The notes under the pieces: generated by a model
What the model saw: only the letters and a program-made list of their open reading frames with translations
Told to the model about the DNA's origin: nothing
Databases searched by the model: none
Part shown: piece by piece, positions 1-27,711 of the stretch
How the letters are laid out: each line of letters opens with the position of its first letter
How positions within the stretch are numbered: position 1 is the stretch's first letter
Made by a program: the position numbers and the translations under genes
NCBI GenBank assembly: GCA_025677835.1
Contig: JAIXMR010000050.1
Span: forward strand, 62,001-126,000
Reading direction: 5' to 3'
Source: Sporodiniella umbellata
Lineage: Eukaryota > Mucoromycota > Mucoromycetes > Mucorales > Rhizopodaceae
DNA: 64,000 bases

Positions 1-330
1 GAGAAGTCTGATCAATTTCCACTATATTAATAGCGCCTTTTATGAGGAAACAAAAGATGAAGGCTACTTTTGGGATAACGTGTGAACAAATAGGACTTTT
101 TCAAAAGCAGTAAGCACTTTATTGTCAAGTTTGGTCTGAAAAGGAAAAAAAAAAAAAAAAAAAAAAAAACAGGAAATGCGCCATAGACTAGAGCGAACCA
201 AAATGTTTATTTCAGAAACTATTCGTCGGTAAGGCAAATGTCTTTGACTGCTCATGTGGCTAAACTTTTAGATTTTCGGATAGTTTGTAAACTTTGGGTG
301 TCTAATGAGTCAGACAGAGTAGCGGCCAGG

Positions 331-621
331 TTATGTGCGAATCTGTAAAGAGCAAAGGTGCAGAATCTGTTTTGGTTGAGAATACTCATGTGAGTATGAC
401 ACATCTGTCTTGAATATATTTATCTTGGTGTTGGATACAGTAGTGTATGTGCTAAAAAGACGGGTGAGACGATAGAGGTCAGTGGAAAAACGTAGAAAGG
501 TTGATATACCGCTTGCATAGACTAAGGTTTTAATTCGAAGAAGGGAAGGCGCTTTACAATGGAAAGACAGCAAGAAAGTTGATGGAAATCTAAACCTTGC
601 AGATTTGACATACAAAATCAA
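331..621 (-). pseudogene. LINE reverse transcriptase fragment (left arm mirror)
   Basis: Mirror of 17194-17484 with an open frame on the minus strand and the same NTKINIFKT motif. Two of the base differences from the right arm are the CpG/TpG-type transitions at 401 and 465. No start, promoter or downstream LINE domain is intact here. Confidence 0.48.
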
Positions 622-3119
622 GAGTTATATGAATGGATCAAAGGCCGCATGGAACAATAAAGAGGACTAAAGACTACTGTATCCGGGACCTCTAGGCTGA
701 TCCAGGGGGCTAGTCAAATGAGTTTTATTAACTGTTTATATTTGGTTCTGAAAGAAAAGACAGTCTATGGCTTATAAAAGTTCAGATGCCTGTATCGCGA
801 TTCTAAAGCAAATAGGATGAGCTTGATCATAGGCCTTCTATTGACCCAACAGTAGACATACTTCATCTGATCAGGGGTATTTGACTATTTTCTTGGTAGC
901 TTTTGTTGTCATGCCAATGTTCTATATAGAGCGATATGGTACAAGTAACTGTTATATATATATATATATATATTTGGGTAATACTATGGCAGATATGCAT
1001 CGTACGCTGATTGAGTGATCCATCAAACATCTCAACATTGATGTCAGTAGATAGTTACTATTCGCTTCTTCTTAGAACTATTTTATATGTAACTATCTAA
1101 TCTTAGTACATACTAAAGTCGATTAGACATATCAATAAAAACCTGTAAGATAGAAAAGAGAAAGGCTAAAAACCACTACAGGTGCCATCTCTACAGTCAG
1201 CTCTTTTGAAGACCAACTATTTATAAAATTTCTGTAGACTCTTACTTGGTAACTTGACAGTGATCATCAAATTGTATTCTTTTAGTAGTACAGGCGCTTT
1301 TTAGAGGCAACAAAACTTGTCTCCTCGACTTGTATAGCCCTCAAAATGGTTTAATAATTAGTGTTTGTATTTTTAACAAAAAAATACAAGATGTCAGCAA
1401 AGCTATAAGCAAAAACAGACTTAATATATATACATGATCTAAGAAAATAGCATGTCATAAATGTCTACTGCTATTAAAACGAATAGCTGCAATTTTATAA
1501 AGACTTTGATTACAAATACAAGCTACTCAAGAAGGCATTACATTTATCTTTATCTTTATCTTCTACAGTAGATAAAAGCCTAGAGTCTAAACTAAACTTT
1601 GTTAAGTGTCTACTGAGAATTATTCTAGAGCCTATGTAGTATCTAACGATTGTTTATTAGGTATATCATATAAAATGCAATCAATCAGCAGCAGAGGTCA
1701 AAAATAAAATAAAAATAATAATAAAAGAAAAAAAAAAAGACTATAATACTTCTAAGGAAAGCTAGACAGTGAAAATACAAACTTTGTGGGCGCGTGGTCT
1801 TATGTTTGTGTAGAGCAATAGCGAACAACACTAAAAAAAAAAAAAAAAAAAAAAACAGCCCATAGGAGACATGAGATATTTTACTTTTTTTTTTTTTTTC
1901 CGTAAAGGATGTGGTTTTATTAACTAAAGGTATTAAAATCCATATATCGTTGATCTTGTACGTCACAGTGAGAGGTATGTATTTGTTATGTGCTTAGGTT
2001 GCGGCATTGGATGAGGGTCTTGGTGATCACTTTTTATGTCTCACACACTACATCGCCGAAAAGTCCAATGTCAGTACAAACAGCATACTGTCAGCAGCAT
2101 GCAGGAACATAACATTAACAACTTGCGGTTGTTGATATAGTTAAAAGACATCAGTCTCAATCAAACGTTCTCCATGTCTTTAGGCTGGAAATTCAGGTAA
2201 AGTGTAAAACGAACCAGGTTTATTTCTATATAGGCCATTTCTTCACGCAAGCCGTTGGAAGGTAAGCGCCACTCCTGTCCTGATCTTACACAGCTAGAAT
2301 AGAAGAACTATAGTATCACCATAACAGCCACCCGCCCAAGAGTACAGTTTTCTATACTATAAGGATCTCCCCCTAGGCTCGACCTTCAAGTTCCAAAATT
2401 TTATCCACATACTGTATGATGAAGTCGTATTAGTGTAAGGTAACAGTTTTGCCATTTGACTTTGACCGTATTGCTTAGGGTAGAAGTCCATTCGTATTGA
2501 TAGTCTCTGAAGCCATTCTATGTATGGTTTATTATCGACCTGACCTTTCTCGGGGGTGTTCAGGATGAGCGGCCAAGCTAAAATAGCAAGGAATTGTCGC
2601 ATTTAACGTGTTTGTAACGTCTCTTATTGTACAACTGGATTTAACGCCGCCTTCCAAGATAAGAGGATACAATAAAGTGTACTTGAGACCTGATTTTAGT
2701 CTTTGATAGAAAGACTGGTATATACACGAGCAGATTCGTCGGTAAAGTTGCTTGGGTAACAACAGAGTACGAAGAAATTACCATAGCTTAGAAATAATGA
2801 GAGAGTTAGTTATTATCCCCCTTTTCCTGTGCAGACAGCTGATGTTAAGCGTAAAAATAACACTGGTATTGAGCTGCCCTTTCTTCAAACGCACGGCACC
2901 AAATGACAGAACCAGTTACTGGGAACCCCGAGTAGTGAGTTGGTTAATGTGACAGGCGGTCATGTTGATTTGTACTATCATGTTCCAACAAAAGTTGATT
3001 CCAGGAGCTAGGTATGGTTCTGCTCAAAGTAATGGCCTTCGTCTTCTTTATATTCGTTTTCGCATTGGACACTTGACTGTATTAACTCAGATGGTATTGT
3101 ACACTAAAGAAATCTGTAG

Positions 3120-3364
3120 ACAAAGATAAAAACACGCATTTGATCCGCATATGTGAGCATCTTAGCTGGGGACATTGACTACGGCATAGTGTTCTTGCAG
3201 AAGCGGTATCCTGTTATTATATCGTCTTACAGGATATGTTGCAGTAGTGACTCTAGGGCTACGTTAAAGAAGAAAAATGAGAGGAGATTGCCCTGACCTA
3301 AACCTCGTCCCTGTTTGATCACTTCTTTAAAATATCCATTGACACTAGCTTGGACGTTGTTACC

Positions 3365-3395
<31 letters not shown>

Positions 3396-3510
3396 TATGT
3401 AATGGACTTGATCCACGTTTCAAGGAACTCAGCTTTTTTCAGAACGAAACGTAGATAGAGTAGATGTACCCGATTGTAGGCTTTCTCTTGGTCCAGAAGA
3501 AATGACGCAC
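3120..3510 (-). pseudogene. Decayed L1-type LINE reverse transcriptase (left arm mirror)
   Basis: Mirror copy of the reverse transcriptase relic at 14310-14710. The DQEKAY segment lies near 3470-3498 and the YADQ segment near 3131-3160 on the minus strand. It has the same lesions, including the poly(A) block at 3364-3393 that corresponds to the T run of the other arm but differs in length. Shared lesions show that the element was already dead before the arm duplicated, or that the arms have been homogenised since. Confidence 0.72.
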
Positions 3511-4226
3511 TTTTTCATCAAAACTCGCTCTTCAATAAATAATAACATCTGCTAAATAAGAGTTAAACGAGGAATATAGTGTTTGACTGAGAATGTATCA
3601 ATATACTTTTGATGCCTTTTTTTTCTTTTCCTTTCTTTGACTTTGTCCCTATCATTTTGTTATTATACAGTGGATCACACAACTATAGCCTTTTGTTTCG
3701 TTCTAAAAGCTACAGTGTATTTCGTTTTGAGAGAAGCCTTGCCTTGCCACTTTGTTGTTTTTCATTACAATGACAAGGACTTTTTTTATAGAAGCCCCAT
3801 TTGGTTTCACTTGATTGATCATGTCAACAAAAAGAGTTTTTTTTATTGCTTTTTTTTTTAATAATATCTTGTTGAATACTCTTTGACTCAACTTTTCTCT
3901 GCTCCCCCCCCTTTTTTTTGTCTTACTGAGAGCTACTTCTTTCTACACTAAAAAAAAAAAAAAGAAAATGGGGCCAACAAGGTAATGCCTGATCACCAAT
4001 GTGGCTTTTGTTTCGTTTTTATATACTAAGAGCCGCAGAGCGCCTCTCTCTATTTTTGCTTTTCTTTGTTCTCACCTTATTGTTGTTGTGTGTTTCAGCA
4101 AGCTTGTTTTTAGAGATGCCTCTTCTTACTTATTACTGATTGTGAAGCAAGAAATTGAAAAGAAGCCTTGTTGCCGGTATTTCTTTATCAAAGTATCTGT
4201 TTTTTTACTCATGTGTATATCCGACA

Positions 4227-4591
4227 TTGTTGAAGCTATAATGAAGATCGTTGTGTAAGATGCTGTTTGATGATTAGTACTATACTTTTTTTTTTTTTTT
4301 TTTTGTGGTAAGCAAAGACAAAGAAAATGTTGAGTGACAACATTAGGACGTATTGTAGAGGAGATTGAATAGTAATCCAAATTAGTTGTCAGCACACAGA
4401 AACCCTTTTAGAATCGCCGCTTATCGTTAACGGCAATTTTGGAAGCAGATAGAAGGAGGCTAAAAATAAGTATCTGACTTTGTACTCCGACTTTTTTTGA
4501 CTAACATTCATTCTCAGCGTCTGTAGCGAACGGAAAATAACCCGATACAGTAGTCACGTGACACTTGTGGCGGCAAAGGTAGTGCTTTATG
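4227..4591 (+). repeat. Dispersed 365-bp repeat, copy A
   Basis: This unit begins at the GAAGCTATAATG segment and ends at GTGCTTTATG. It recurs as copy B in the right arm and as copy C at 19407-19770 outside the arms. It includes a T run of variable length near 4286-4303, GTGGTAAGCAAAGACAAAG, the palindrome GTCACGTGAC near 4555-4562, and a GCGGCAAAGG segment. No protein is recognisable and no clear target-site duplication or TG..CA ends are seen, so a solo LTR, SINE or other repeat cannot be decided. Confidence 0.85.
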
Positions 4592-4668
4592 CTGAGCATA
4601 AAGGACTATTCGAAATTTCCTTGACACACTTTTTTTTTTTAGTGTGTGAATATTTTCACACTAAGAAA
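4585..4668. repeat. Hairpin cluster at the edge of repeat copy A
   Basis: A perfect 19-nt palindrome, CTTTATGCT-G-AGCATAAAG, spans 4585-4603. It is followed within 50 bp by two short inverted pairs: ACACAC(T-run)GTGTGT around 4625-4647, and TAGTGTG(10-nt loop)CACACTA around 4641-4665. The mirror copy lies around 13155-13240. Copy C of the dispersed repeat ends inside the left half of the first palindrome. Confidence 0.7.
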
Positions 4669-4982
4669 ACACAAAAAGGTTAATATTTTTTTTAAAAAAA
4701 GACACTAGAATACAGCTTAACTTTGAAACGTACAGCCCTACAGGTATATATTTCAAAGTCAGTAAATTGAATATTTGTAGCCTATTCCACCATGTTGTAA
4801 AGATTTGAAAAAAACAAATAAAATAAAAGACAAAACAAAACGAAAAGCGCATAGACATATATCAGTATATGAATTTTTTATACAGATAGAACTAAGTAGG
4901 CAACTTGAAGGCTGCATATTCCTGAGTTGAAATTTTGTATAATCCGCTGAACTTTTTTCCCTTGTACCCCTTCAATATGGTT

Positions 4983-5027
<45 letters not shown>

Positions 5028-5307
5028 CTCCTGAAAAAAAGGGGTCAAAACAAAACAAAATAAGCCCAATTTTTTTTTTTTTTTTTTTTTTTTTGAAGAA
5101 AATACCGAATACTTTGCAAGTTTTGTAAGCAGTTTATACTTGTACTTAGCATTCATTTTTTTTTTTTTTTTTTTTTTTTGTTTCTGATAAAAATGTTTCT
5201 TAATTTTTGTATCTAGAAGTCTTAAGAATTTCTAAAAATACAAAAATAACGATACTTTTTTAAGGTTTAATGACTCAATTATGATAATAACAAAAAAAAA
5301 AAAAAAA

Positions 5308-5327
5308 GGGAGAGAATTTTGTAAAAA

Positions 5328-5359
<32 letters not shown>

Positions 5360-5390
5360 AAAAAAAAGGGAAAAAATTTTGTTAAAAAAA
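5308..5390. repeat. Tandem GGGAGAGAATTTTGT/CAAAA unit, two copies
   Basis: The left arm has two units that begin GGGA.A.AATTTTGT and are separated by CAAAA repeats and A runs. The corresponding part of the right arm (12422-12535) has three units. Purely low-complexity sequence with no coding sense. Confidence 0.75.
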
Positions 5391-5699
5391 ACCCCCGTAT
5401 GATACAATACAAAATTTTATATATAAATTCTTTTTTTTTCTTTTCTTTTTTTCTTTACTTTACTTTTACAAAAGTTTTTTAAAGTTAGTAAAATATATAA
5501 TTCATTTACGTGTCTCTAACAATTATATTTATTTGTACATATATGTCGTTCTAGTAGATTTAGTGATATTCAGCAAGACTTGCTCTCAAGACCCTTTTTT
5601 TTTAAGGTATAGCCTGCAATAAAGAACTACTTATACTTATACACATACACTGTGTTATCTGATAGGACACTTGGTAGTCTAGGTGGTTACGCATTTTTC

Positions 5700-5952
5700 T
5701 TGTAACACCTAAGAAGGCGGCCACCGAAGCACCCGCCGCACACCTTTGCATGGATTCGAATGCATGCTCTGCTTTGACAAAGGTCGATGCAGTTTTGGCG
5801 GTATGGGGCTGACTACCAACTATCAGATCTGCGGGGAGAGTTTAGAGGAAATGACCTCACTATCGGGCGATTTGGTGCCCGTTGTCGAACCACTTCCGGT
5901 AGCTGCAAGAGCGAAAGAACGGGTCGCGATTCTCTTCCCCAACACAATAACA
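5700..5952. other. GC-richer island of unknown origin (left arm)
   Basis: About 250 bp with clearly higher GC than its surroundings, bounded by A runs. Plus-strand frames give MHGFECMLCFDKGRC and a second overlapping open frame (MQFWRYGADYQLSDLRG). On the minus strand FVKAEHAFESMQRCAAGAS is open. I cannot assign any of these to a family. The composition suggests a relic of coding sequence or a captured transposon piece. The mirror is 11866-12118. Confidence 0.4.
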
Positions 5953-6116
5953 AAAAAAAAAAAAAAAACTAGTGTCCTTCATAAATCAAATAAATTGAGT
6001 CTTTCGTCTTTTCTTTTTTTTTTTTTTTTTTTTTACTTCATATCAATAAATTTGAAACCTAGTACTATTTCTGTATCTTAATTTTCTCAAAAATGTTTAC
6101 ATTTCTTTGGTTCGCT

Positions 6117-6147
<31 letters not shown>

Positions 6148-8140
6148 GAATCATGTCTCTCCATGTTAAGCATTTGTGCAATGCAATCTGCCATACTGCA
6201 AAAACAACTTTCTTATACACTGAAGATATAAAAAAAGAAGCAAATAAACGAGCTGTAAAAGGTTTTTTTTTAAAAAAAATTGCTAATGCAGCTAAAACCA
6301 TATAGAGATTTGTGTCATGTCAAATTTAACAATGCAAAGCTTTTTGAATGACCTTACCTTTTTTTTTCATACCCTTTTCTCTTTAAAGTACAGCGAAACA
6401 AAAGCAAGCGTTTTTAGTATACTTGAGTCTAAAAGACTTGAATGCCTACTATAATCAAGATCACTTTTCTCAATGCCAAGAATGCTTTGAAATGCAAAAA
6501 AGGATTTTTTTAAAAAAAAAAAAGAAAAAAGCTAAAAACAGTAAAAACAATACCAATAATATCATAAATGGTTTCAAACAAGAAAAAAGAAAGAAAACTG
6601 TGAACATTGCAAGTTGGGCTAATCTGCAAAGTTGGTACATTTCTTAAGCAATTAGCGGTCTAGATCTAGAAAAAAAGTTATGTGTACCCTCATATAAGCT
6701 TTGGTGATTCCAAATAAAACCAAAACAAGCAGAGAATAAAAATGAGCACCCTACCCTTTTTTTTTTTTTTTTTTGTAATCAAAGACTATAGGATTTGTGT
6801 GCCTGGACAAACAGTTATTGAGCTACTTTTCTAGCTCCGAATGAATTTAGGCTTCAGTTCATCAGAAGCTATCAAAAAACAAGACAAAGCAAAAATCGTT
6901 TTGGAACTTGCAATTTAGTCTAAACTTAGCTTCAATAAAAAGCCTTATAAAATTACACTTGGTTTTTTCTGTTTACCTAAATTGGCTCTCCTCATTTTTA
7001 ATGATGACAGTAGAATCTTGTTAATTGAAACCTTCATTACAACAATATATCGTTTTGCAGTCAAAATTTTGCCACTGTATATAAAAGTACTCCAAGTGGT
7101 CTCTAGGTGACTACAGGAAGTTTTATAGAGAAATTGTGTGTCATAAATATTATAGCTTCAAGCTTTTGTTATATGGTTATGCGGAGATAAAAATCCGGCT
7201 TGACAAGCGGAGACTATTTTCAAATATGTCAACTGTAACTCTTAGCTATAACGAATAAACGAACTTTGTTTTGCTTTCATTTTCTTTTACTATACCAAAA
7301 GCTAAAGAAAACTAAAACTCTATATAAAGCCCCCGTTAGAGTTTTTGTTTGATTTCAAGCATCAAGATGCTGGATTGTCTGATTAGTGACATTCATTACT
7401 GTTCTTATAAGCCGACTCAAGGTTGCTTTTTTTCAAGAAATAGTAGAAAAGGTTCAGAAAACAGTAAAAATAAAAAAATACATATTAAAGCGAAATGCTT
7501 TGGAAATGAAAGCTATTTTAAAAAGAAATATCGACTTTTTGAATCTGTTGCAATTCAAATGTTTACATGATGCCATTGACATGATGTTCAAAAGATCTCA
7601 TACAGCCTTATTTTATTTTTTTTGTAAATTTCTTTCAAGCTCTACAAGATTGCGCTTTTAATTAGAAACATAAATAAAAAATACGATTTTTTTTTCGCTT
7701 CTGTTATACATAAGAAATTATACCAAAAAAAAAAAAAAAAAAAAAACAAAGCAAACTAAACTAAAATGCAAGCAAAAGTTCGAAAAAACTTAAAATTTTG
7801 TTGCTAAGATATAAAGCTGAAAATAATCAATATACAAATAAGCAAAATTATACCAGATTTTCACAAAAACTATGTAGTAGCACCAGTAAAAAAGAAAAGC
7901 AAAGTTGCTAGCTTTCACTGAGTTTTTTATACAACGAATAGCATTTGTAACAAATGTTGTACAAACATTTTGTATATGATATTTATCAAATATCAGCTTG
8001 TTTTTGTAGCTATCTTAGTACTGTGCTGTCAATATGCAACCAAAAAATACAGAATAAAAATAAAAATAAAAAAACCAAAAACAAACAAAAAGAAAAGTTA
8101 TTTGGGCCAATTGGTTTTTTTTATTACATTGAGAACCAAG

Positions 8141-8305
8141 CTATGGAACTGCTTGATCCTCAACGTCAACTGAGTGCATTGTCTGCACAGGGTCTTCTGG
8201 CACCAGAGCAGACGCGATTTCGAGGGACAACAAGACACCCTCGTTCAATATAGGCAGTGTTTGCCTGGTTTCTTGTTGAGGCACGGTTTGTTCTTCGTAG
8301 TCCAT
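8141..8305 (-). CDS. Small 54-residue ORF, unknown function (left arm mirror)
   Basis: Mirror of the ORF at 9503-9667, identical in sequence, reading away from the central spacer. The opposite strand of the same island is also open (MELLDPQRQLSALSAQ...). Because the composition itself creates open frames, coding status is uncertain. Confidence 0.3.
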   Translation of the reverse strand: MDYEEQTVPQQETRQTLPILNEGVLLSLEIASALVPEDPVQTMHSVDVEDQAVP

Positions 8306-8541
8306 CTTGTTAAATTTATGTGATAATTCTTCATTCGGTTGAGCAAAACGTCTACCATTTATACTAAATCAGTTTTCACAATTTGGATCAAAGCCTAGTA
8401 ATCTTTATACTTTTAAAAACCCCACATAGAAGCGATACTTTAACCGTCGAGGGTTTATAGTTTTTTTTAAAGTTCATAGCTAACAAAAAGCGCTGTTCAA
8501 TCAACAGTACACTGTCGATTAAAAGATGAGAACAGAAAGAC

Positions 8542-9266
8542 ATGATTGTGGAGCTTGTACTGGTTTTTTCTATACATTTCAGTATTGTTATAAAAACTTT
8601 AAAACAAACTCGGAAAAAATTTTTAGTATCACTTTATATAAAACTTGTTGCTGAGCAATGCTACTTGCTTTTTTAAAAACTATACTTACTAAACATTATT
8701 GAGCTTAAAAATAGTTTATTTGGTTTCTTTGAAAATAAAACACGGTTAAATTTTAAAAATAGCCATAAAAGCTGCATTTTTTTAACACACAAAATTCTTT
8801 GCTACCATTTCGACTTTTCCTTTTTTTTATTTATAAACCAAAACTCACATTTAAAAAGTGATTAAGCGTTTTAAAATAATGGTATGATATGACTTGTAAT
8901 AATTGTACGCACTACGTTATTAATCATGAAGAAAAGCTGCATTTAAAGTCTACATTGTCAAAATTCTCAGGGTAATGCACACAAATGCTTTGCAGAGTTG
9001 GAAAGTTTTTTTTTTTTGTTACTAAAATAAAAATGTTTTTTCAATGTTTCTAAACAATAAAAAAATTGTTGCAATTTTAATTTTGGGTATGTACACAAAA
9101 AAGACTAACGTTATATGAAAAAAAAAATTGCTAAACCCTATGATTTTTTTCAAAGACAATACAAAGCCTAGAAAAAGTATGTAAAATACTTTATAAAAAA
9201 GCAGTTTTTACTGTGTTTATCAGCTACATTATTGTGACCGTATACATTAAATTCTCTCTATACCAC
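8542..9266. other. Unique AT-rich spacer between the inverted arms
   Basis: About 725 bp that is not mirrored, lying exactly at the centre of the inverted repeat. Sampled lines are roughly three quarters A+T, with T runs and A runs of 6-10 nt, and no open reading frame of useful length on either strand. It has no match to the neighbouring repeat units that I can see. Its position and composition make it the candidate core of a centromere-like or replication-related structure, which is an inference. Confidence 0.6.
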
Positions 9267-9502
9267 GTCTTTCTGTTCTCGTCTTTTAATCGACAGTGTA
9301 CTGTTGATTGAACAGCGCTTTTTGTTAGCTATGAACTTTAAAAAAAACTATAAACCCTCGACGGTTAAAGTATCGCTTCTATGTGGGGTTTTTAAAAGTA
9401 TAAAGATTACTAGGCTTTGATCCAAATTGTGAAAACTGATTTAGTATAAATGGTAGACGTTTTGCTCAACCGAATGAAGAATTATCACATAAATTTAACA
9501 AG

Positions 9503-9667
9503 ATGGACTACGAAGAACAAACCGTGCCTCAACAAGAAACCAGGCAAACACTGCCTATATTGAACGAGGGTGTCTTGTTGTCCCTCGAAATCGCGTCTGC
9601 TCTGGTGCCAGAAGACCCTGTGCAGACAATGCACTCAGTTGACGTTGAGGATCAAGCAGTTCCATAG
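9503..9667 (+). CDS. Small 54-residue ORF, unknown function (right arm)
   Basis: An ATG-initiated ORF of 54 codons encodes an acidic peptide beginning MDYEEQTVPQQE and ending VEDQAVP. It stands out because its base composition is near 50% GC inside very AT-rich DNA, and because it is unchanged between the two arms. No family is recognised. It may be the first exon of a longer gene, a transposon fragment, or a chance ORF in a GC island. It starts about 235 bp outside the spacer. Confidence 0.3.
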   Translation: MDYEEQTVPQQETRQTLPILNEGVLLSLEIASALVPEDPVQTMHSVDVEDQAVP

Positions 9668-10145
9668 CTTGGTTCTCAATGTAATAAAAAAAACCAATTG
9701 GCCCAAATAACTTTTCTTTTTGTTTGTTTTTGGTTTTTTTATTTTTATTTTTATTCTGTATTTTTTGGTTGCATATTGACAGCACAGTACTAAGATAGCT
9801 ACAAAAACAAGCTGATATTTGATAAATATCATATACAAAATGTTTGTACAACATTTGTTACAAATGCTATTCGTTGTATAAAAAACTCAGTGAAAGCTAG
9901 CAACTTTGCTTTTCTTTTTTACTGGTGCTACTACATAGTTTTTGTGAAAATCTGGTATAATTTTGCTTATTTGTATATTGATTATTTTCAGCTTTATATC
10001 TTAGCAACAAAATTTTAAGTTTTTTCGAACTTTTGCTTGCATTTTAGTTTAGTTTGCTTTGTTTTTTTTTTTTTTTTTTTTTGGTATAATTTCTTATGTA
10101 TAACAGAAGCGAAAAAAAAATCGTATTTTTTATTTATGTTTCTAA

Positions 10146-10457
10146 TTAAAAGCGCAATCTTGTAGAGCTTGAAAGAAATTTACAAAAAAAATAAAATAAG
10201 GCTGTATGAGATCTTTTGAACATCATGTCAATGGCATCATGTAAACATTTGAATTGCAACAGATTCAAAAAGTCGATATTTCTTTTTAAAATAGCTTTCA
10301 TTTCCAAAGCATTTCGCTTTAATATGTATTTTTTTATTTTTACTGTTTTCTGAACCTTTTCTACTATTTCTGAAAAAAAGCAACCTTGAGTCGGCTTATA
10401 AGAACAGTAATGAATGTCACTAATCAGACAATCCAGCATCTTGATGCTTGAAATCAA
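10146..10457 (-). CDS. Hypothetical 103-residue ORF (right arm); frameshifted in left arm
   Basis: An open frame begins MISSIKMLDCLISDIHY and is Lys/Phe-rich. In the left arm (7349-7661, plus strand) one extra A after the T run near 7433 breaks the frame into two overlapping ORFs. The region is very AT-rich, so a lysine-rich ORF of this size can arise by chance, and no family is recognised. It is recorded because the indel gives a direct arm-to-arm difference. Confidence 0.2.
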   Translation of the reverse strand: MISSIKMLDCLISDIHYCSYKPTQGCFFSEIVEKVQKTVKIKKYILKRNALEMKAILKRNIDFLNLLQFKCLHDAIDMMFKRSHTALFYFFCKFLSSSTRLRF

Positions 10458-11657: not shown

Positions 11658-11691
<34 letters not shown>

Positions 11692-11767
11692 CGAACCAAA
11701 GAAATGTAAACATTTTTGAGAAAATTAAGATACAGAAATAGTACTAGGTTTCAAATTTATTGATATG

Positions 11768-17484: not shown

Positions 17485-17815
17485 CCTGGCCGCTACTCTG
17501 TCTGACTCATTAGACACCCAAAGTTTACAAACTATCCAAAAATCTAAAAGTTTAGCCACATGAGCAGTCAAAGACATTTGCCTTACCGACGAATAGTTTC
17601 TGAAATAAACATTTTGGTTCGCTCTAGTCTATGGCGCATTTCCTGTTTTTTTTTTTTTTTTTTTTTTTTTTCCTTTTCAGACCAAACTTGACAATAAAGT
17701 GCTTACTGCTTTTGAAAAAGTCCTATTTGTTCACACGTTATCCCAAAAGTAGCCTTCATCTTTTGTTTTCTCATAAAAGGCGCTATTAATATAGTGGAAA
17801 TTGATCAGACTTCTC

Positions 17816-20760
17816 CTAATCATTCACTTTCATAATTTGGGAATCTCTATCCTATATTGCTTGATTTACGGTATTAGACTCCATCTTTTCGACAGCGTAA
17901 CACCTTAATTTACTGTTGTCTCGAGTTTATCAATCACCAAAAGATAGAAAGAGTGCTTTTCTTTGTCAGCAATCCTCGCGCTATGCTGGCTTCCCATGTT
18001 CAAGACCCCATCCAATACGAACACTGTCAAATTTTCAAGCAACGCCTTCCTTGGCGTGTATTGACAGAAGATCTGTCACGAATGACCATTGAGACATAAA
18101 CCACCCTTCGAGCTCCAACACTCTTCTTCAGATCTATAATCAATAGCACCAACTGGGGGTGTTCAATGTCTGCATGGTATTTGAGAAGAAACAGATCCCG
18201 GACTTTCTACTATCCTCTAGTAAATAGTAAATCCTTTCACAATCTAGACACCTACTGCACATAACTTTCCAATTGTTTTTGTGGCTTCCATATACCCTTT
18301 CACAGCCAGTTTATTGAGTCCATTGAGCTGATTTTGTTATGTTTTTCAGGCTAGTTTACCTTGTTTGAAAGTGGAACGTAGGCTGCAATTACCTTTTTTT
18401 ATGCTTCTGTTAGTTTAAACACCAAAGGTAGGAAATACATCAGAGACCATTATGTCGATCCACCCTTCTATCTTGCCTCTCTGTATACCGTTTTTTTTAC
18501 CCTTGATTATTTCCGATTATAGTACAGAGCTTCTAAGCTTTTTTCAATACAATACATAGCTTGTACTGCCAAGACTATACGATTTCCACACAGACCCATA
18601 ACCTACGACAGCATCAGACCTCTCCTAGCAAATACCATTGACTATATTCATAGCCAAAGTAGAATAACATTTATTTGACTCGATAGTTTTCTTAGCCAGC
18701 CTTTAACATATATTTTTGCTTGGTAACTCTCAAGCATGTGAAGCAGATAACACTCATCCTTTTACTAACCAAACCCCTGACAGGTCTAAACAGCTCTACA
18801 GAGATTTTTCAGTTCGTGATCCTCTTTTCTACCACTTGTTTTTTTCAAGTGCATATATTCTACATATAACTCACCAAACAAAGCTGTATAGGTCTGCTAC
18901 TCTCTAAAGCTCCTTTGAGATCTTGTGTCCGGTGGCCAGGTTTCTCAGTGAATGTCTCTATACTTTGAATTCTCACAAGTTGAAAAAAGCAACCTACTTA
19001 ATAGCGTGTCAGCAACAGGTACTGTTTCTTTTTTTTTCTCTTTTCTAAGCTTGTAACAAAATGCATCGTTATACTGGTTGTAATGTAGAACATTTGAAAA
19101 CAAAGAAAAGAATGTTGTCAAAAGTACTATTTTATTGTCAATGCTTTCTTTGTAGTAAAGAGTGTATAACGTCTTTTTTTCTTTCATCCTTTTTCTTTTT
19201 CTTTTCTTTTCTTTTTTCTTTTTTTGCTTTTCTGTACTCTCTCTTTCCTGCCTTCTTGCTGTTTGCTTTTTGGTAATTTTCTCTTACATCTTTCTACTCA
19301 TCGTTCGCTGACTGTAAGATTAAATCAAAAATAAACCTTGTTAAAAAAAAAAGTTCATTAGCATGTTTTATCTCTTTTTTTAAAAAAAGTAATGTGATGT
19401 AGCTAGTACTATTGAAGCTATAATGGAGATCGTTGTGTAAGATGCTGTTTGATGATTAGTACTATACTTTTTTTTTTTTTTTTTTGTGGTAAGCAAAGAC
19501 AAAGAAAATGTTGATGACAACATTAGGCGTATTGTAGAGGAGATTGAATAGTAATCCAAATTAGTTGTCAGCACAAAGAAACCCTTTTAGAATCGCCGCT
19601 TATCGTTAACGGTAATTTTAGAAGCAGATAGAAGGAGGCTAAAAATAAGTATCTGACTTTGTACTCCGATTTTTTTTGACTAACATTCATTCTCAGCGTC
19701 TGTAGCGAACGGAAAATAGCCCGATATAGTAGTCACGTGACACTTGTGGCGGCAAAGGTAGTGCTTTATGACTTCGTTCATAGTAGGTAGCAGTCATGTA
19801 AAAGACTTTTATATATTAATCTTTATAAAAACCTCTAACTGTTAGCTACTCAATACAGTGATACTAGGTCAAGTTTACAGTCAACAGACCTGGTCTATGT
19901 AATATAAAAGTAAGGTAAAAAAGAGCCAAAAAAAAAAAAAAAAAAAAAAAAAAAACAGCACAATCGTTTTTTTTTACCCTTACTTTTTTTCTAAGTCTCC
20001 AAATATTACTAAAAAGCATCTGTAGTAGATATTGAAAAACTTGGACATCTTTGCCGTAAACGTTGTATGCCAACTGAAATGCTCATAAAAAACTACTCTA
20101 AGACCATTTAAAAATTTGCTTTGCTATGAACAGATATCAATTTTTGATGTAAGTTTTTTTATATATTACTAAGCATTAGCAGTATATGAAAAAAAGTTAT
20201 TACTCACACAAAGCAGTTTGGCTTTTGGATATGTTGCCTCCTTTTGGCGCTTTACAAATGTAGTATTTTTTCAAGCCAGCTGTTTAGGCGTCTATAGCGT
20301 ATTTCACCATGGTAAAAAAAACAAACAAACAAATAGTATACAAACTAGATATTGAAAAAAAATAGCAAGTATACTTGAAAAAACTTACTGGAACTTAGTA
20401 AGGAATTTGATTAATCAAGACTGACTATCAAAGTATAGGTCTTTATATTAGAACCATAGGAGTTTTATTATGCATTTGGTACTCCTTATAATCTAACATT
20501 ACATTCCATGGATAGTGTATAGTATGTGAAAAGCTTGAAAAAGTGCTCTTTATTTTCTAATTTTTTTGCTACCTAATTTGCTAAGTACAATTTACTAAAG
20601 GCTGTAGTAATCCGCCTTTTTTTTTTTTTTTTCGAAAGGCTAGCTCAGTCAGAAAAAAGCTCAGCGTCTATAGAGTGAGCGACCAATTTATTAATCTTGT
20701 TTTTTCTTAGACTCCTTAAATTTTAATCGATCAACCTCATTCGTCATCTCACCAGCCTTT
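17816..20760. other. Gene-free region with transposon-like debris
   Basis: No supported gene. Moderately GC-balanced sequence at 17816-18960 translates into many short, stop-broken stretches that may continue the LINE debris of the right arm, but no diagnostic motif is clear. The stretch 19140-19280 is a C/T-rich tract. Copy C of the dispersed repeat is at 19407-19770. Long A or T runs are at 19928-19955 and 20616-20632. Confidence 0.5.
19407..19770 (+). repeat. Dispersed 365-bp repeat, copy C (outside the inverted repeat)
   Basis: A third copy of the unit at 4227-4591, in the same orientation as copy A. It starts at ATTGAAGCTATAATGGAG and ends abruptly at GTGCTTTATG, after which the sequence is unrelated. 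Compared with A and B it has single-base deletions in the GTTGATGACAAC and TTAGGCGTATT segments. The flanks share no homology with the arms, which defines the unit boundaries to within a few bases. Confidence 0.85.
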
Positions 20761-20813
20761 TTTTTTAATTTGAATGGTCACGTACTTTCACGTGATATGC
20801 AGCTCAAAAAAAG

Positions 20814-21035
20814 TATAAAAAGAGGGCAGTTTTTTGCAAAAAATTAAAAGTTTGAAGCATTCCTAAGCTATAAATTGGGAACGAGGAATTAAAAACTCTT
20901 CCGCGTGTTAGTGCGACAAACTACCTCCTTGGCAGAGGTGCAATATCTGCGAGGTCAGACGAACTTTCACCTCCCCGTGGTTGACCTTGGAAATCATAGT
21001 CTCTTGACTGTGAGCTAGGAAAAGTTCTTTTTTTT
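20814..21035 (+). ncRNA. Candidate structured RNA gene, unidentified
   Basis: A TATA box (TATAAAAAG at 20814-20822) follows two CACGT-type sites (20778-20783, 20789-20795). About 185 nt of normal-composition sequence then ends in an 8-T run at 21028-21035. The body contains potential stems GGCAGA..TCTGC (about 20930-20950) and GGTCA..TGACC (about 20953-20988), and has no ORF. It does not match the conserved parts of U1, U2, U4, U5, U6, U3, 5S, RNase P or SRP RNA that I know. The layout suits a small RNA transcribed by Pol III or by an snRNA-type promoter, but the identity is open. Confidence 0.3.
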
Positions 21036-22735
21036 ATATATATATATATGTCTACATATATATATATATATATAGCAAAATAAAATGAAAAATCTCTAAA
21101 AAATTTTGGTTCATAAATCTATATACTCTAAAGCTTATTACTTTGCTAGCTCTTGAGTCTATTAAAAAAAGGATCTGAAGGATTTTGAGTACAGAGCTTG
21201 AATAGCAGTGAACATCTCTGGCAATACAATTAAGTCACCGATTACATCTCCGCTTTTTTTTAAAGAGTAGACGCGTCTTGAAAAAAAAAAAAAAAAAACA
21301 GTGTTAGTACTACTACAATTTCTTGCTTGTAACCAATAACCGCAACAGCCTCTTTTTTTTCTCTCATCAAAAACTACTTGAGATGCAAAAGGGGATGTTC
21401 GTCTTTTTTTTTTGTAGCCTTGTCGGTTTTTTTATTTGGCAGAAGACTCTCATCCCACCAAAACACTTTTTTAATGGCAAAGCAATAACAATCAGAGAAT
21501 TGTTTCCTTTCTTTTGAACTGTTACGGCGCCTTTACCTCTTGCGTTTTTGACAAATGTATCAAGCAGCAAAAGACCTAAAAGCATTTGAGGAATCTTGGT
21601 TTTACTTGAAACCAATGTGACAAATGTTAACATTGCAGTGTTTATAGAAAGCTTTAGCTAAACATCAGTGACAAGACTTGCTTCATCAGCCTTGCGTAGA
21701 GTAAACGTTAGATCTTGAGTTATAACAAGTTCTTAGTAAAAGAGGCCTAAAAAAAAAAAAAAAAAAAAAAACGCGAAATCTTTGTGTTTAGCATGCCAAG
21801 GAACTTACAAACAGCTGCTTAGTGATTAAAGTCGGCTACTATCAAATTGTCGAGTTTAGTAACTGGAAATGTCTGTAAAACAGTGCTAGTAGCTTTCAAG
21901 GATAAGCATACAGAAAAATAGCACCAGAATATCCCAGGACTTGATTTTCAACAATGGAGTCATCCCTATTGAGATGTGCTGATGTTTGCTTTTACATTTG
22001 GCTTAAGCCTATTATAACACCGGTTTTCCTACCACCTATGAATCTCAAGAAAAAGACCAGTACCTTGTTAGATAGAAAAGGACTCATATAGACCAACTAG
22101 GCTAACTATGGTTCGACACTAAAATCATGCTCTGTACATCATATACAAAGAGTCATTTTTGGCCGAGTTAAAGGGCAGAGAAGAGTGAGCTATCATTACT
22201 GGGTAGCCGAGAGCCGCTACAAGTCTTCTAAGGAAAAGGGTAGCTCACTTTGAATACCACAGGTCATCCCAGTCTGTCAAACGTGGCTATAGAAAGGCAG
22301 TGCATTTTATCGAAAAAATTTGTAAATCCAGTAGGTATCAGCTTATTCATTTTCTCTTTCTTTCTTTCCTTTAGTACATGCTAATGCATTACAAAAATTG
22401 CTAATCTTAGAATTTGAACAAAAACAGCGTATAGCGGCTTGTGCTTAGAAATCAAAAATCTTAGCATCATGTAAACCGACAATTTGAATATTCCACTACT
22501 GCTTCCTACCGCTCATAATACTTGTCTTATCCTCCCATATCTGTAAAAACTCTCCTTCAGGCGACATATATAGTACCTAGATGGCCCATGTTTCTGATTC
22601 CAAGCCTTTAGGGTACCAATTACCTATAGTCTTAGAGAAGTTCGATTTTTAAATATAGGCAGAGGGCAACCATACTCAAAGAAGCAAACCAGTAAACTGC
22701 TTCAAAAAGAACTAATTTAAAAACAACCAACACTC

Positions 22736-23080
22736 TTAGAGAAAGTCCACCTCAACAAATGAACACTCTGTCATATCTAAGAGGTCAACAGTAGCAATAA
22801 GCGCGGGATCTCTATTTTGAGCCATCTTTTTGATGCAGTATCGCGAACCTTTAAGCTTTGGATGTACTATTTGGTAGCAATAGTAGGACACCATACGTTG
22901 GCTGAAAAAGATAATTGTTTCATAGTGTTTATATACTAGCTGAAAGCAGCTCCCTCCTCTGCAATTGTAGGATTTTACGCCATTGTCAACCTGTGTTTCT
23001 TTGTCACCAATGACTAAGAAAACAGTACCTTTCCTATGACAAACCAAAATGAAAGAGTGTCTCCTGTGAGTGTTTAACAA
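22736..23080 (-). CDS. Orphan 114-residue ORF, unknown
   Basis: An open frame from MLNTHRRHSFILVCHRKG to SFVEVDFL, with mixed, protein-like composition rather than a homopolymer pattern. Segments such as FLVIGDKETQVDNG and LIATVDLLDMTECS look plausible for a real protein, but I recognise no domain. There are no visible neighbouring exons. It could be a fragment of a transposon ORF or a young gene. Low confidence that it is expressed. Confidence 0.25.
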   Translation of the reverse strand: MLNTHRRHSFILVCHRKGTVFLVIGDKETQVDNGVKSYNCRGGSCFQLVYKHYETIIFFSQRMVSYYCYQIVHPKLKGSRYCIKKMAQNRDPALIATVDLLDMTECSFVEVDFL

Positions 23081-25016
23081 TTTTTATCTTAATTTTCCCC
23101 ATTCTTACTATAGCTAAAGTTGTAAAAAAAAAAAAAAACGTTTGAAATACAACCGTTCATTGTTTTAATAAGAAATGGAAAAGACTTTTTTTTTCTATTG
23201 CTTTCATACAAATATTTCGCTGCAAACTGTTGGTATATTAACCAGAGTATGGTATCCTAAATAAAAAATTACCCTTCTAAATTTTTTTGGGTAAACAATA
23301 CTCTTATCCTTAATATACGTTATGAGAAACATTTGCATAAAATGGATTGCCGTTTTAATCAATAGGCTCCCGAAAAAACCAAAGAGTGGTGGAGTTGTTT
23401 TTTGTAGTCAAATATATATCGTATACACAAGATACAACTATACAAATAAAAGTCAAGCGAAATATAAGCATAAACCGAGAAGTTGGTATTGTAAAAGTTC
23501 ATTCAGAAAAGAGTCTGCTGTTGATAACTTCAGTACTTTATATTGTATGCGCTAAACCTCTTTGCAGGGTTTTTTTATAGAACGTTAATAAGACTTACCG
23601 TATGGATGGCCTAAGGCCATTGCGTTATGAGGATACTGTATAAATTATTTCAACCGAAGAATCGAATTCAGTCAAACTAGCATATATCAGCCCTTTAGTT
23701 TTTTAAACAGCATCAACATTTACTGTGAATTTTTTGGCTTGAATTCTTCACTGAAAACAACTATACTTGTAGACTTAAAAAGCAGTGTTGGCCTTTCTAT
23801 ACAAAACTAAGATACTAGAAAAAAAGAAAATATAACTATACTACATACGACATATCTCTACTCTTTTAAAGCAAAACCGAACCCTGTTTTGGGTATCAGC
23901 TATCAGAGGGCATTTATATTACAGTTAGCTATATGAATTGGTACCACACACAACTACAACTTTCGAAAACAAATAACATGAACAATCTCGAAAAGTTTTT
24001 ATCAAGGGAATTGCAAGTCTCGTTTTTTTTTTTAAAAAAAGCTATATTTTATTGATATTCATAACGTTACAAGAGTTTAAAACTATTGAAAAGAAAAAGT
24101 AAGTAATTGTTTTTTTTTTTTGCTAGCATTTTAAAAGAGTGCTCATCGATCTTGGTGATATTTATTAGCTTCATTGTTTCTCAGAAGTAGCAAATATTTT
24201 TATAATCATTGCAATCTTTTTTTTTTTTTTTGTTCACACTGTTTTTGACGGGTACTTTACCTTTTGTTTGTAGATTGGATAAAGAACAATTAGAGGCAAG
24301 ATTTTTCTTATAAGCTTTTAAGAATGGGACTGTTAGGCTAACACAGAAAATTTTTTTATTTAAAATTCCGAGCTACATATAAGCCACTGCCATTTAATTA
24401 ATATTCACGAGTATCTTCTGATATAGGCAGACAGGCGACAATTAGTGGTGACAAAAAGTACTATCGATATGGTCGCTGATAGATGGGTCACCTCGAAAAC
24501 TTTTTAATATATTTTACTAAAAAAAAAAAAAAATAAGCGTGAGCCACTGTTATATGGATCTTCATGTTTTTGCCATAAAGCTACCTGAGAAGTAATGTAG
24601 CTCACGTAGCAGCCTTATTGTATTGAAAAAAAGCATCATTGAATACATGAGCCCAAAGCGTTCTCCATATACTGAATGTGCCACAAGTTATGGCTTTCAA
24701 GATATTATGTTTACACCATTCTTAGACTCGTAAATTTCTGCTCAAAAGGCTTCATTTACGCCCCACTCTTGATAGTTCGGGCTTTTCCGCAAAGCGGGAA
24801 ACGAGGATATACCAGGCGTTTTGTTTGAGCGAAATAGGTGTAATAACCGAGCGAGGTCGAGTCTTATTGTCCTAGAAGGTTTGCCTCATTAGAAACATGT
24901 TGTATGGAAAGCTCCAGATCACATTTCGTGCTGAGTTTGTTATAGAGCTTTTCAAAAGCTTCTTTTTGTGTCAAGAACATGAGGCTGACAAGTCTATCAA
25001 AAGAAGGTAGTGCTGA

Positions 25017-25411
25017 CTATGTCAACAGGATGTCATCGAGTATTCCCGAAAACCTCAGAATGTTATAAGTGGGTACTGTTTTACAGTACGATTCAACGTA
25101 AATCTGTCTGATGTTGGTTAGGATTTTGCGAAAAAAAAAAAAGAAACCCCGCTCAAAAATATGTTTATTCCTTAGTTTTCTCGTCATGGTAGAGGCATTG
25201 AAAGTCTCAGGATTGGGTTTTCCGTCAGCCACGTTGAAGCTGTATACATCTTTGTGCCCAAAACGTCTCGTTTGACTATATACTTTGGCTGGACCATTGT
25301 AGTTGATAACAATTTAAAGAAACCAAGGTTTTCAGCGTCGTTGCCTTTTTCTTTACACACATACAGATACAAGTTCTTTTGGTTTATGCATTCATACTTC
25401 CAAAGCATCAA
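25017..25411 (-). pseudogene. Frameshifted ORF remnant, unknown family
   Basis: Two overlapping minus-strand frames read as one protein if a frameshift near 25215-25235 is allowed: LWKYECINQKNLYLYVCKEK...YIVKRDVLGTKM, then VADGKPNPETFNASTMTRK...HIFERGF. A 12-nt A/T run follows at 25130-25141 and a stop at 25017. The protein-like composition continues across both frames, which suggests a decayed gene or transposon ORF. No family assignment is possible by eye. Confidence 0.3.
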
Positions 25412-27711
25412 AATTTGCTCTACTGGTGCTCACTCTGCGGTTTTGAAGCACTTGTCAAAAAAATTTTGATTGTAGCTTGGCCTGTATTGTTGGACAGTAT
25501 AGTTCTTCATAAATGATTTCTGTACTATCCAAAAGGTTTCTCTTGAAGCGCTCAATTTATTCATTGAGCAATTCAAACTCCTCTATCATTGTCGCTCTCT
25601 AATAGTTTGGCAGACTCAGGCATTGCAACATTCGGCAAACTCTCTTCGCTTTAATTTCAACCGAAACACTTGGTTTTCAGTTGGCGTTTCCGCTTTTTTT
25701 TTTTTTTCTGTTAGCTGGGTTTTGATGGATTAGTTTATTATGATTTTGTTTGAAGTGAAATGCTCTCTGTTTTTCAAGTTTCTGTGTTTGTGTGTGCGTA
25801 TATTAATCTGCCTTCTTCTCTTATGTGGTTGAAAGAATCCATATATCAAAACGCTCAGTCGGCTAAATTTGTCTATACACTTGACCGTTGGTAGTTTCTT
25901 TGTACAATCGCTCTAGTTTGCAAAATCTTCTATATTGGGTCAGACAATTTCTTAGTCCTATTCTATTCTTTAGTCGCTTTTCTGTAGATGTACTGAAAGT
26001 AGTGAGGAGCTGTACCTTAAACTAAAGCTATCTACAATTACAAAAGGTCAATTTTTGTGCCGTGAGCGGCCTGCAAATATTCTATGTTGGAACTATTTCT
26101 ATATGCCGGTACGTTTCTCGTTTTATATATGCTATGAAAAGTCTCAGTCCTGGAGATGTTAAATTAGCCGGACTATTCCAGTGTATAAATGCTTTTTATT
26201 AACCTATGCATAAAGAATCATTTCAGAAATGATTAGTTACTCAGTTGCGTATTTCAATCTAGTATGTAGTGTAGCTGCTGCAGTAGCTTTTGCGTTCTGT
26301 TGCGGTAGTTAGAACGTACTATACATATACAGGGAACGACTAAAATAATTCAAAACTACAGACAGTATTTGCTTATTTTTTTTTTTAATTTCCTAAAGTA
26401 ATCCGAGATGGAAATCGGATACTGGTCATAGTCAAGAACAAGTTGAAACAAATTCTAATGCAGCTGGGAGATTCAAGATGACAGTACCTACTAAAACCAC
26501 ATTTTTGGCAAATGTTTCGGTAGTTTTTTAATGATGGCATTATTTGTACATTAGGCGTGTATAACAGTTAATATACCAGCTTTTTATTAATAGTAACACT
26601 ATATACAACACTTCTGATGCCCAGGATTCGACCGAAAGCCCTAGATATAGGCACACCCTATAAAATTTAAAGAGTGCTTGCTTCTTTTATACAAAGTACT
26701 TGAAAATACATTATGTATACCCACACTTGCGAATCATTTAACTTGGGCATTAAAAGCTTTAATTGAGCCGATCAAAGGTTGGTTTGTTTATTCCAGTACC
26801 TTATAAACAAAGAAAAGCTCAGTATGTGGTTGGTTTTTTCTTTGTTAACACCCATTTCATGTGTACTCTGCATTAAACAGCTAGCTTAATATTAAGGCTT
26901 CTGTAAATTGGACCTTTATATAAAGTTTTTTTAAAAACTTTAATGGCTCAGTTTTGAGTCCCAAAGCACCTCAAACAGGTTTATTTTGGATTTGGAGTAT
27001 TCTAATATTCAATTTTCTTTTAAAGAAAGAGAACAAACATCTAAACTTTATGGAGTGTAACTAAGAATATTCGAAATCCTTCTTGAGAGATAAAGTAGCC
27101 TTTTGCAGGTTCTATTTTCATCGAGCAATGCTATAATTGCCTCAAAGATTGTATAGCAGCTTTTGGTTGATCTATAATTGAGTGATAAGGGTAATTATAT
27201 CTGCTTTATGAATGTATACTTACTGGTCTAGACAATCGGTTGCTTCATAACTACTTTTTTAATATTGGTTTTAATGTTTCTTTTTTATACTCAAAACGAT
27301 ATTAGAGTATACTTATTACTTACTTGAAGCACCTGTCAATAAGAAAATAGTATTACACATTCGTTTGATGTTTCTCTAAAAACACTTTGGTGATATTTAC
27401 TTTTTGAATAGAAGAAATATGCTGCAAAAGTTTCTATAATGCTGTTCACTCAGTCAATGTTCAGTGTTTGTTATTAGTAATTGATAGCAAGGCCGTTTTT
27501 TATGCTCAAGTAACATCCAAAAGCTTGTCTTGTATTTCAAGGAAGCATGTTTCTGGGGCAATTTTTCTTTTGAAAGAGTACAAGATAGATACATTGCAGT
27601 CACATAAAAAAACTGAGCAAACGCAGAAGAAAACTTTAAAGAAACCACAAAAAATAGCTCACCTTATTGGCTGCTCTCTTTCTCTTTTTTTTTTTTCTTT
27701 TTTTTTTTTTA

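What the first reader, a model, noticed from the sequence alone, without database searches (positions are those of the whole stretch)
1..27711. Centromere-like architecture: AT-rich unique core between 8.5-kb inverted repeats in a gene-free LINE block
Seen: a 725-bp unique, roughly 75% A+T core lies exactly at the centre of two near-identical inverted arms of at least 8.5 kb. The arms contain dead L1-type reverse transcriptase. The whole 27.7 kb has no confident gene, and an ordinary gene-dense region begins abruptly afterwards. Known: core-plus-inverted-repeat centromeres occur in Schizosaccharomyces pombe and Candida tropicalis. In Mucor, small AT-rich kinetochore-binding cores of under 1 kb lie in gene-free pericentric DNA with LINE1-type elements. 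Inference: this window may include a centromere, combining a Mucor-sized core with a long inverted repeat.
Basis: partly seen in the sequence, partly recalled or inferred. Interest (0 to 1): 0.88.

Follow-up and report, generated by a model that had tools for sequence, protein, structure and literature searches.

The report
Possible inverted-repeat centromere in a mould
A 32-kb stretch without recognised protein genes in the mould Sporodiniella umbellata holds two 12.7-kb mirror-image copies around a small AT-rich centre, a layout known from some yeast centromeres; it may be where one chromosome attaches to the spindle, but DNA alone cannot prove it.

Summary
The window lies on a 169,512-bp contig whose COG4 protein is filed as Sporodiniella umbellata (Mucorales). 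Two 12.7-kb arms (window -4099..8544 and 9264..21939) are mirror images with 49 substitutions in 12.6 kb (0.39%), around a 719-bp spacer of 25% GC. From the COG4 start to the next coding start is 32 kb with no protein gene that I could recognise; one C/D snoRNA (SNORD24) lies in the right margin. Each arm carries two dead L1-type RT fragments pointing away from the centre. The four arm stretches tested (7.8 of 12.7 kb) occur nowhere else in the genome. None of the 11 histone matches is a CENP-A and no CENP-C was found.

A centromere is the single best explanation (about 0.45), close in plan to the fission-yeast and Candida tropicalis/C. sojae type. A young inverted segmental duplication in a gene desert is nearly as likely (about 0.38). 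Against a centromere: no convincing motif shared with other sampled blocks, LINE fragments within 1-3 kb of genes on other contigs, inverted repeats also on contig C194, and one block per chromosome not shown. Kinetochore ChIP or Hi-C would decide.

The parts
1..8544 (+). Left arm of the inverted repeat, inner part; the arm begins outside the window at -4099 (contig C145:57901)
   Evidence: Self-BLAST of the contig; 98.7% identity to the right arm
8545..9263 (.). Unique spacer/core, 719 bp, GC 25.3%; most AT-rich 200 bp at about 9001-9200 (GC 0.20)
9264..21939 (-). Right arm of the inverted repeat (mirror image of the left arm)
2887..3502 (-). Dead L1-type LINE reverse transcriptase fragment, left arm, pointing away from the core
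   Evidence: RVT_1 E=4.4e-4, below the Pfam cut-off; tblastn 44-48% to the LINE on C90
400..918 (-). Second, more diverged LINE RT fragment, left arm, pointing away from the core
14318..14965 (+). Mirror copy of the first LINE RT fragment, right arm
16894..17415 (+). Mirror copy of the second LINE RT fragment, right arm
4230..4591 (+). About 360-bp segment present twice in each arm (other copies at -1953..-1599, 13242-13595 and 19412-19770)
21940..27711 (.). Right margin: single-copy DNA without a recognised protein gene, outside the repeat
   Evidence: (21950-27670, only match is itself)
24140..24213 (-). SNORD24 C/D-box snoRNA gene inside the right margin
   Evidence: Rfam RF00069, 44.5 bits
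27712..28494 (+). First coding sequence to the right of the block; its second part matches Rua1_C just below the cut-off (24.3 against 27 bits)

Best explanation
The block is most likely the centromere of its chromosome in Sporodiniella umbellata. The kinetochore would assemble on or near the 719-bp AT-rich spacer and the innermost arms (inferred). The two 12.7-kb arms would be its pericentric flanks: DNA without protein genes, with LINE remains, probably silenced through small RNAs as in Mucor (inferred), and kept nearly identical by recombination between the two arms (inferred from 0.39% divergence in arms that share the same old, dead LINE fragments). In plan it is a chromosome-specific inverted repeat around a unique core, in a lineage without CENP-A. 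Shown: the anatomy, the near-identity, that the four arm stretches tested are unique to this locus, the AT minimum at the centre, the lack of recognised protein genes, and no detected CENP-A or CENP-C. Not shown: any centromere function.
For: Exact mirror symmetry about a unique core. Lowest 5-kb GC window of the contig at the centre; the core is as AT-rich as only 3.2% of 725-bp windows in the block and 0.1% in the rest of the contig. Gene gap of 33.5 kb against a next-longest 7.06 kb in the contig. Both LINE fragments of an arm point away from the core (by symmetry the other arm adds nothing independent). Arms unique to the locus in the four stretches tested, 7.8 of 12.7 kb, like the chromosome-specific inner repeats of fission yeast (recalled). 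Lower divergence near the core: 6 substitutions in the inner 3.6 kb against 43 in the outer 9 kb, P about 0.005, but the cut was chosen after seeing the data. All 11 histone matches were read: three H3 genes of the same sequence, one further H3-type gene (two matches), two H2B, three H2A, one H2A.Z, no CENP-A; no CENP-C_C match. This is consistent with the loss of CENP-A reported for all Mucorales examined (PMC9089191, section 6 read). Predicted C. sojae centromeres have a similar scale: about 2-kb core, 3-12-kb inverted repeats (PMC7292649, passages).
Against: No convincing motif is shared by the core and other sampled blocks (six shuffles each): C43 and C194 lie within the shuffles, C149 scores 17.2 against shuffles of 15.4-16.7, but two genic control stretches score the same (17.0, 17.1). 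Mucor cores share a 41-bp motif; it is unknown whether any sampled block is a centromere. LINE RT matches are spread over 25 contigs (44 matches, 4 of them here) and several lie within 1-3 kb of genes. Inverted repeats also occur on C194. A snoRNA gene lies in the right margin. Only 13 of the 24 other LINE-bearing contigs were looked at, over 7-37 kb each, so one block per chromosome is untested. The core is only moderately more AT-rich than the inner 2 kb of the left arm (25% against 31% GC).
Confidence: 0.45

Rival explanations
1. A young inverted segmental duplication inside a gene desert with old transposon remains. One arm was copied once in inverted orientation by a replication or repair accident; it has no function and will decay.
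For: 0.39% divergence, the same dead LINE fragments in both arms, sharp outer ends with no obvious homology beyond them. The genome makes other inverted duplications: C194 has 2-2.6-kb inverted copies around a small gene-like frame (no Pfam match). The tested arm stretches are not a repeat family.
Against: Does not explain why the largest gene gap of the contig, its AT minimum and the symmetry centre coincide, nor 32 kb without recognised protein genes. No other inverted repeat of 300 bp or more in the sampled stretches of 13 of 14 other contigs (166.9 kb in all; the exception is C194).
Confidence: 0.38
2. The block is a centromere or pericentric block, but the inverted repeat is incidental: the centromere is of the Mucor kind, with a motif in the arms or spacer, and a recent inverted duplication happened inside it.
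For: Same facts as for the centromere reading; no inverted repeat is mentioned for Mucor centromeres in the section and passages read, so symmetry need not matter in this order. The Mucor centromere paper itself was not available.
Against: The symmetry centre coincides with the unique AT-rich core, which an accident would not favour.
Confidence: 0.1
3. Assembly artefact (fold-back or chimeric join).
For: Long palindromes are a known artefact of some long-read assemblies (recalled); reads could not be examined.
Against: Each outer end runs into different DNA: an apparently complete COG4 gene on the left and 5.7 kb of single-copy DNA plus another gene on the right. The arms differ at 49 bases, mostly transitions, which a fold-back of one molecule or a join of two alleles would not give together with different flanks.
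Confidence: 0.05
4. A hairpin RNA source: read-through across the spacer gives a 12.7-kb double-stranded RNA that Dicer cuts into small RNAs against LINEs.
For: Mirror arms with LINE fragments; Mucor silences pericentric Grem-LINE1s by Dicer-dependent small RNAs (PMC7377519, passages). Compatible with a centromere.
Against: The LINE fragments are only 27-56% identical in protein to the better-preserved LINEs compared, probably too far for direct base-pair targeting. No transcription data.
Confidence: 0.02

Closest known systems
Mucor circinelloides/lusitanicus mosaic centromeres
   Same: Same fungal order; no CENP-A detected; core of about 1 kb or less; pericentric DNA without protein genes and with L1-type LINE sequences (PMC9089191 section 6; PMC7377519 passages)
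   Different: Long mirror arms, not mentioned for Mucor in the texts read; only degenerate LINE fragments here; no shared core motif found; LINEs of this genome are also outside such blocks
Schizosaccharomyces pombe cnt/imr centromeres
   Same: Unique central core between innermost inverted repeats specific to that chromosome (imr; recalled); 32 kb in all, somewhat below the 40-100 kb quoted in PMC7292649 (passages)
   Different: No outer dg/dh-type repeats shared with other loci were found in the stretches tested; S. pombe uses CENP-A (recalled)
Candida tropicalis / C. sojae homogenised inverted-repeat centromeres
   Same: Core of about 2-3 kb flanked by 3-12-kb inverted repeats in ORF-free DNA (PMC7292649, passages)
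   Different: C. tropicalis centromeres are alike between chromosomes; here the arms tested occur at one locus only. Core is smaller (719 bp). CENP-A present there
Grem-LINE1 retrotransposons
   Same: L1-type element; the better-preserved copy on C59 has a zinc-knuckle frame (zf-CCHC, 21.7 bits, cut-off 20.8) and an endonuclease match (Exo_endo_phos_2, 28.3 bits, cut-off 27.4), the kinds of domain named for Grem-LINE1 in PMC7377519 (legend of Fig 7)
   Different: In the block only RT fragments remain; the family assignment was not tested against Mucor sequences

Membership tests
Mucor-type mosaic centromere | Kinetochore proteins (Mis12, Dsn1; names recalled) bound to the core | not testable with these tools
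   Needs ChIP
Mucor-type mosaic centromere | No CENP-A in the genome | tested here: met
   All 11 histone matches read, none a CENP-A. Limits: histone H4 did not appear in that list, so the search does not catch every histone and a strongly diverged CENP-A could be missed
Mucor-type mosaic centromere | No CENP-C in the genome (recalled as part of the Mucor description) | tested here: inconclusive
   No CENP-C_C match, but the control genomes shown are prokaryotes, so there was no positive control
Mucor-type mosaic centromere | AT-rich core of about 1 kb or less | tested here: met
   719 bp, 25.3% GC
Mucor-type mosaic centromere | Core motif (41 bp) shared by all chromosomes | tested here: inconclusive
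   The core's only match is itself; no convincing shared segment in C43, C149 or C194. The Mucor motif's letters were not available
Mucor-type mosaic centromere | Gene-free pericentric DNA with L1-type LINEs | tested here: met
   32 kb without a recognised protein gene, two LINE RT fragments per arm; one snoRNA in the right margin
Mucor-type mosaic centromere | LINEs concentrated in pericentric DNA | tested here: inconclusive
   44 RT matches on 25 contigs, 4 here; on C42, C125, C135 and C170 within about 1-3 kb of genes
Core-plus-inverted-repeat centromere (S. pombe / C. tropicalis type) | Unique core flanked by long near-identical inverted repeats in gene-free DNA | tested here: met
Core-plus-inverted-repeat centromere (S. 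pombe / C. tropicalis type) | Repeats shared or alike between chromosomes | tested here: not met
   Four arm stretches (1361, 3331, 1551 and 1561 bp) match only this locus apart from low-complexity hits; applies to C. tropicalis and to S. pombe dg/dh, not to S. pombe imr (recalled)
Core-plus-inverted-repeat centromere (S. pombe / C. tropicalis type) | CENP-A on the core | tested here: not met
   No CENP-A found in the genome; so it can only work like one, not be one
Any monocentric centromere | One such block per chromosome | tested here: inconclusive
   13 of 24 other LINE-bearing contigs sampled over 7-37 kb, none with this layout; C43 has a 12-kb gene gap with a dead LINE and no inverted repeat. 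The assembly is in 198 contigs

The most novel reading that the evidence does not exclude
A mucoralean fungus without CENP-A has evolved, or kept, fission-yeast-like centromeres: a sub-kilobase AT-rich core held between long chromosome-specific mirror arms that recombination keeps alike. Inverted-repeat geometry would then be a centromere design that does not need CENP-A.
Probability: 0.33. Interest if true: 0.85.

Novelty: new variant of a known kind. Interest (0 to 1): 0.55.

Why it matters
How chromosomes choose a kinetochore site without CENP-A is open, and Mucor is the only mucoralean with mapped centromeres that I met in the literature searched (listings; section and passages). If this block is a centromere, a mirror-arm layout exists in a lineage without CENP-A, which would point to DNA geometry or arm-to-arm recombination, rather than the histone, as the shared ingredient. 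If it is not, it shows that ORF-free DNA with inverted repeats, features by which yeast centromeres have been predicted together with synteny, is not enough.

Tried and rejected
Arm against the whole genome in one piece: swamped by low-complexity hits and did not list its own copy, so I did not use it and tested four smaller stretches instead. C194 as a second core-plus-arms block: I read it as copies of a small gene-like frame, intact in several copies and without a Pfam match, next to a PLU-1/PHD gene; I judged it a repeated gene cluster, but this is my reading of open frames. C49/C149 as the two broken arms of a second block: rejected, genes lie on both sides in C149 (Glyco_transf_15 and ADH_N matches) and the shared 7.4 kb there lies between 466-bp direct repeats. 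Target-site duplication at the outer ends, as for a giant terminal-inverted-repeat transposon: none seen by eye in the junctions. Telomere or subtelomere: genes on both sides; TTAGGG/CCCTAA only 14 and 20 times in 169.5 kb, although another telomere repeat is reported for Rhizopus stolonifer (PMC13111411, passages), so the count alone is weak.

In 21 Mucorales/Umbelopsidales species named in both listings, the two listed contig lengths agree in 1 (Radiomyces spectabilis). In many of the others the listed contigs are short or from another assembly; of 8 species with both contigs over 1 Mb (Phycomyces blakesleeanus left out, because its listed contigs seem to come from different assemblies), 1 agrees. 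No control pair of ordinary neighbours was run, so I draw only the weak conclusion that the two genes are not shown to be linked in most relatives.

CENP-T_C search: 8 matches. Three over the cut-off lie beside the H3 genes and are probably H4 (not read), three coincide with the H3 genes, and one weak pair on C119 was left open. It tells nothing about CENP-T. The Mucor centromere paper is not held.
Full report
WHAT IT IS IN. The window is contig C145, 62001-126000, of a 25.95-Mb genome in 198 contigs. The COG4 protein whose listed contig has the same length, 169,512 bp, is filed as Sporodiniella umbellata (P0001). This species belongs to Mucorales, in which CENP-A is reported absent from all species examined (PMC9089191, section 6 read).

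THE OBSERVATION. I joined the window to the DNA left and right of it and compared the contig with itself. The inverted repeat is 12.6-12.7 kb per arm, not 8.5 kb, because the window cuts the left arm: window -4099..8544 and 9264..21939, 98.7% identical counting gaps, with a 719-bp spacer 8545-9263. Aligned base by base, the arms differ by 49 substitutions (42 transitions, 7 transversions) and 36 indels, 30 of which are length changes of a homopolymer. The spacer has 25.3% GC; 3.2% of 725-bp windows of the block and 0.1% of the rest of the contig are as AT-rich. The lowest 5-kb GC window of the contig starts at contig 70300, on the centre; at 0.295 it is lower than in the sampled stretches of 13 other contigs.

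GENES. The left border is COG4: by homology its start lies at -4351, 252 bp from the arm. The right border is a coding frame that begins at about 27,712; its second part matches Rua1_C slightly below the cut-off. In between, 32 kb, I recognised no protein gene. With frames of at least 150 aa the gap is 33.5 kb and the next longest in the contig is 7.06 kb; with 120 aa one frame without a Pfam match splits the gap into 10.3 and 21.9 kb. Of nine frames sent to Pfam, eight were from the block and its margin and one from COG4. One block frame matched RVT_1 at E=4.4e-4 (below the curated cut-off), three gave sub-threshold chance-like matches, four gave none, and COG4 was recognised. A SNORD24 C/D snoRNA stands in the right margin at 24140-24213 (-), so the block is free of recognised protein genes, not of genes.

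LINES. Each arm has two L1-type RT fragments, at 400-918 and 2887-3502 (-) and mirrored at 14318-14965 and 16894-17415 (+); they point away from the core. They are 27-56% identical to the better-preserved LINE frames compared and carry stops, so the element died long before the arms were last made alike. The RVT_1 family search found 17 places in the genome and none on this contig. A LINE RT query gave 44 matches on 25 contigs, 4 of them here. I looked at 13 of the 24 other contigs, over 7-37 kb each; on C170 the stretch lies between its LINE matches. On C42, C125, C135 and C170 frames with Pfam matches (kinase just under the cut-off, Alg9-like, kinase and epimerase, polysaccharide deacetylase) lie within about 1-3 kb of the LINE. 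C90 and C59 showed no gene frame of 150 aa or more besides the LINEs in the 7-8 kb seen. C43 has a 12-kb gap without a clear gene between 46.1 and 58.2 kb, with a dead LINE but no inverted repeat. None has the C145 layout.

UNIQUENESS. Four arm stretches (window 2000-3360, 10100-11650, 12860-14420, 17690-21020; 7.8 kb) match only the two arms, apart from low-complexity hits and an internal 360-bp repeat of the arm. The right margin is single-copy. A search with a whole arm was swamped by low-complexity hits and is not used.

KINETOCHORE GENES. The histone search gave 11 matches, all read: three H3 genes of the same protein sequence, one further H3-type gene (two matches), two H2B, three H2A and one H2A.Z; none is a CENP-A. 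H4 was not in that list, so the search is not exhaustive. CENP-C_C gave no match, without a eukaryotic positive control. CENP-T_C gave eight matches, six of them at the histone clusters. This agrees with the published loss of CENP-A; I did not prove absence.

HOW IT MOST LIKELY WORKS. I read the block as a centromere at 0.45: kinetochore on or near the spacer, silenced arms with LINE remains as pericentric flanks, and arms kept alike by recombination between them. Steps shown are the anatomy, the near-identity, the uniqueness of the tested arm stretches and the AT minimum. Kinetochore binding, silencing and conversion are inferred. Divergence is lower near the core (6 substitutions in 3.6 kb against 43 in 9 kb, P about 0.005), but I chose the cut after seeing the data. 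The main rival, a young functionless inverted duplication, explains the near-identity as well and is helped by the inverted copies on C194. It does not explain why symmetry centre, AT minimum and the largest gene gap coincide. An artefact is unlikely because the two outer flanks differ and the arms carry real differences.

AGAINST THE READING. The best ungapped segment shared by the core and other blocks is no better than shuffled cores for C43 and C194; for C149 it is slightly above six shuffles (17.2 against 15.4-16.7), but two genic control stretches score 17.0 and 17.1. LINEs are not confined to such blocks. One block per chromosome is untested. COG4 and an aminopeptidase gene right of the block are on contigs of different listed length in 20 of 21 relatives named in both listings, many of them uninformative and without a control pair.

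KNOWN RELATIVES. In order and core size it is nearest to Mucor's mosaic centromeres; in geometry to S. pombe cnt/imr (recalled) and to the C. tropicalis/C. sojae type (PMC7292649, passages). It cannot be filed as the latter: the arms tested are not shared between loci and no CENP-A was found. It can work like one. The search listings showed no report of inverted-repeat centromeres in Mucorales; only that library was searched, I read passages or one section of seven of its papers, and the key Mucor paper is not held.

CHECK. 

Noticed in passing
window 24140-24213 (-): A SNORD24-like C/D snoRNA stands alone in DNA with no recognised protein-coding host gene.
   Followed up: partly
window 4230-4591, 13242-13595, 19412-19770 and -1953..-1599: A 360-bp segment occurs twice in each arm and had no match elsewhere in the genome; possibly a small non-autonomous element.
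   Followed up: partly
L026, L022, L023, L027 (C194:14001-51000): Several copies of a small gene-like frame (no Pfam match) in direct and inverted orientation, 89-99% identical, make 2-2.6-kb inverted repeats.
   Followed up: partly
L021/L025/L028 (C149:155660-166050) and L020 (C49:48334-55541): A shared block of about 7.4 kb (89-96%) with LINE fragments and, in C149, a 169-bp tandem repeat; in C149 it lies between 466-bp direct repeats (97.9%) and between genes.
   Followed up: partly
L024 (C55:8001-11800): Tandem array with a unit of about 470 bp close to a LINE fragment at 12.6-13.0 kb.
   Followed up: no
L037, L036, L038 (C43:46050-58200): A 12-kb AT-rich stretch without a clear gene and with a dead LINE, between a long coding frame and a protein kinase gene: a second gene-poor block, without inverted repeat.
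   Followed up: partly
G000:C119:90213-90308 (+) and 93173-93268 (-): Two equal weak CENP-T_C matches (23.5 bits, below the cut-off) in inverted orientation 3 kb apart.
   Followed up: no
L014 (C58:30001-40000): A Ty3/gypsy-type element with two long open frames (RVT_1, RNase H and integrase domains), in the last 12 kb of the contig, which ends with a LINE.
   Followed up: no
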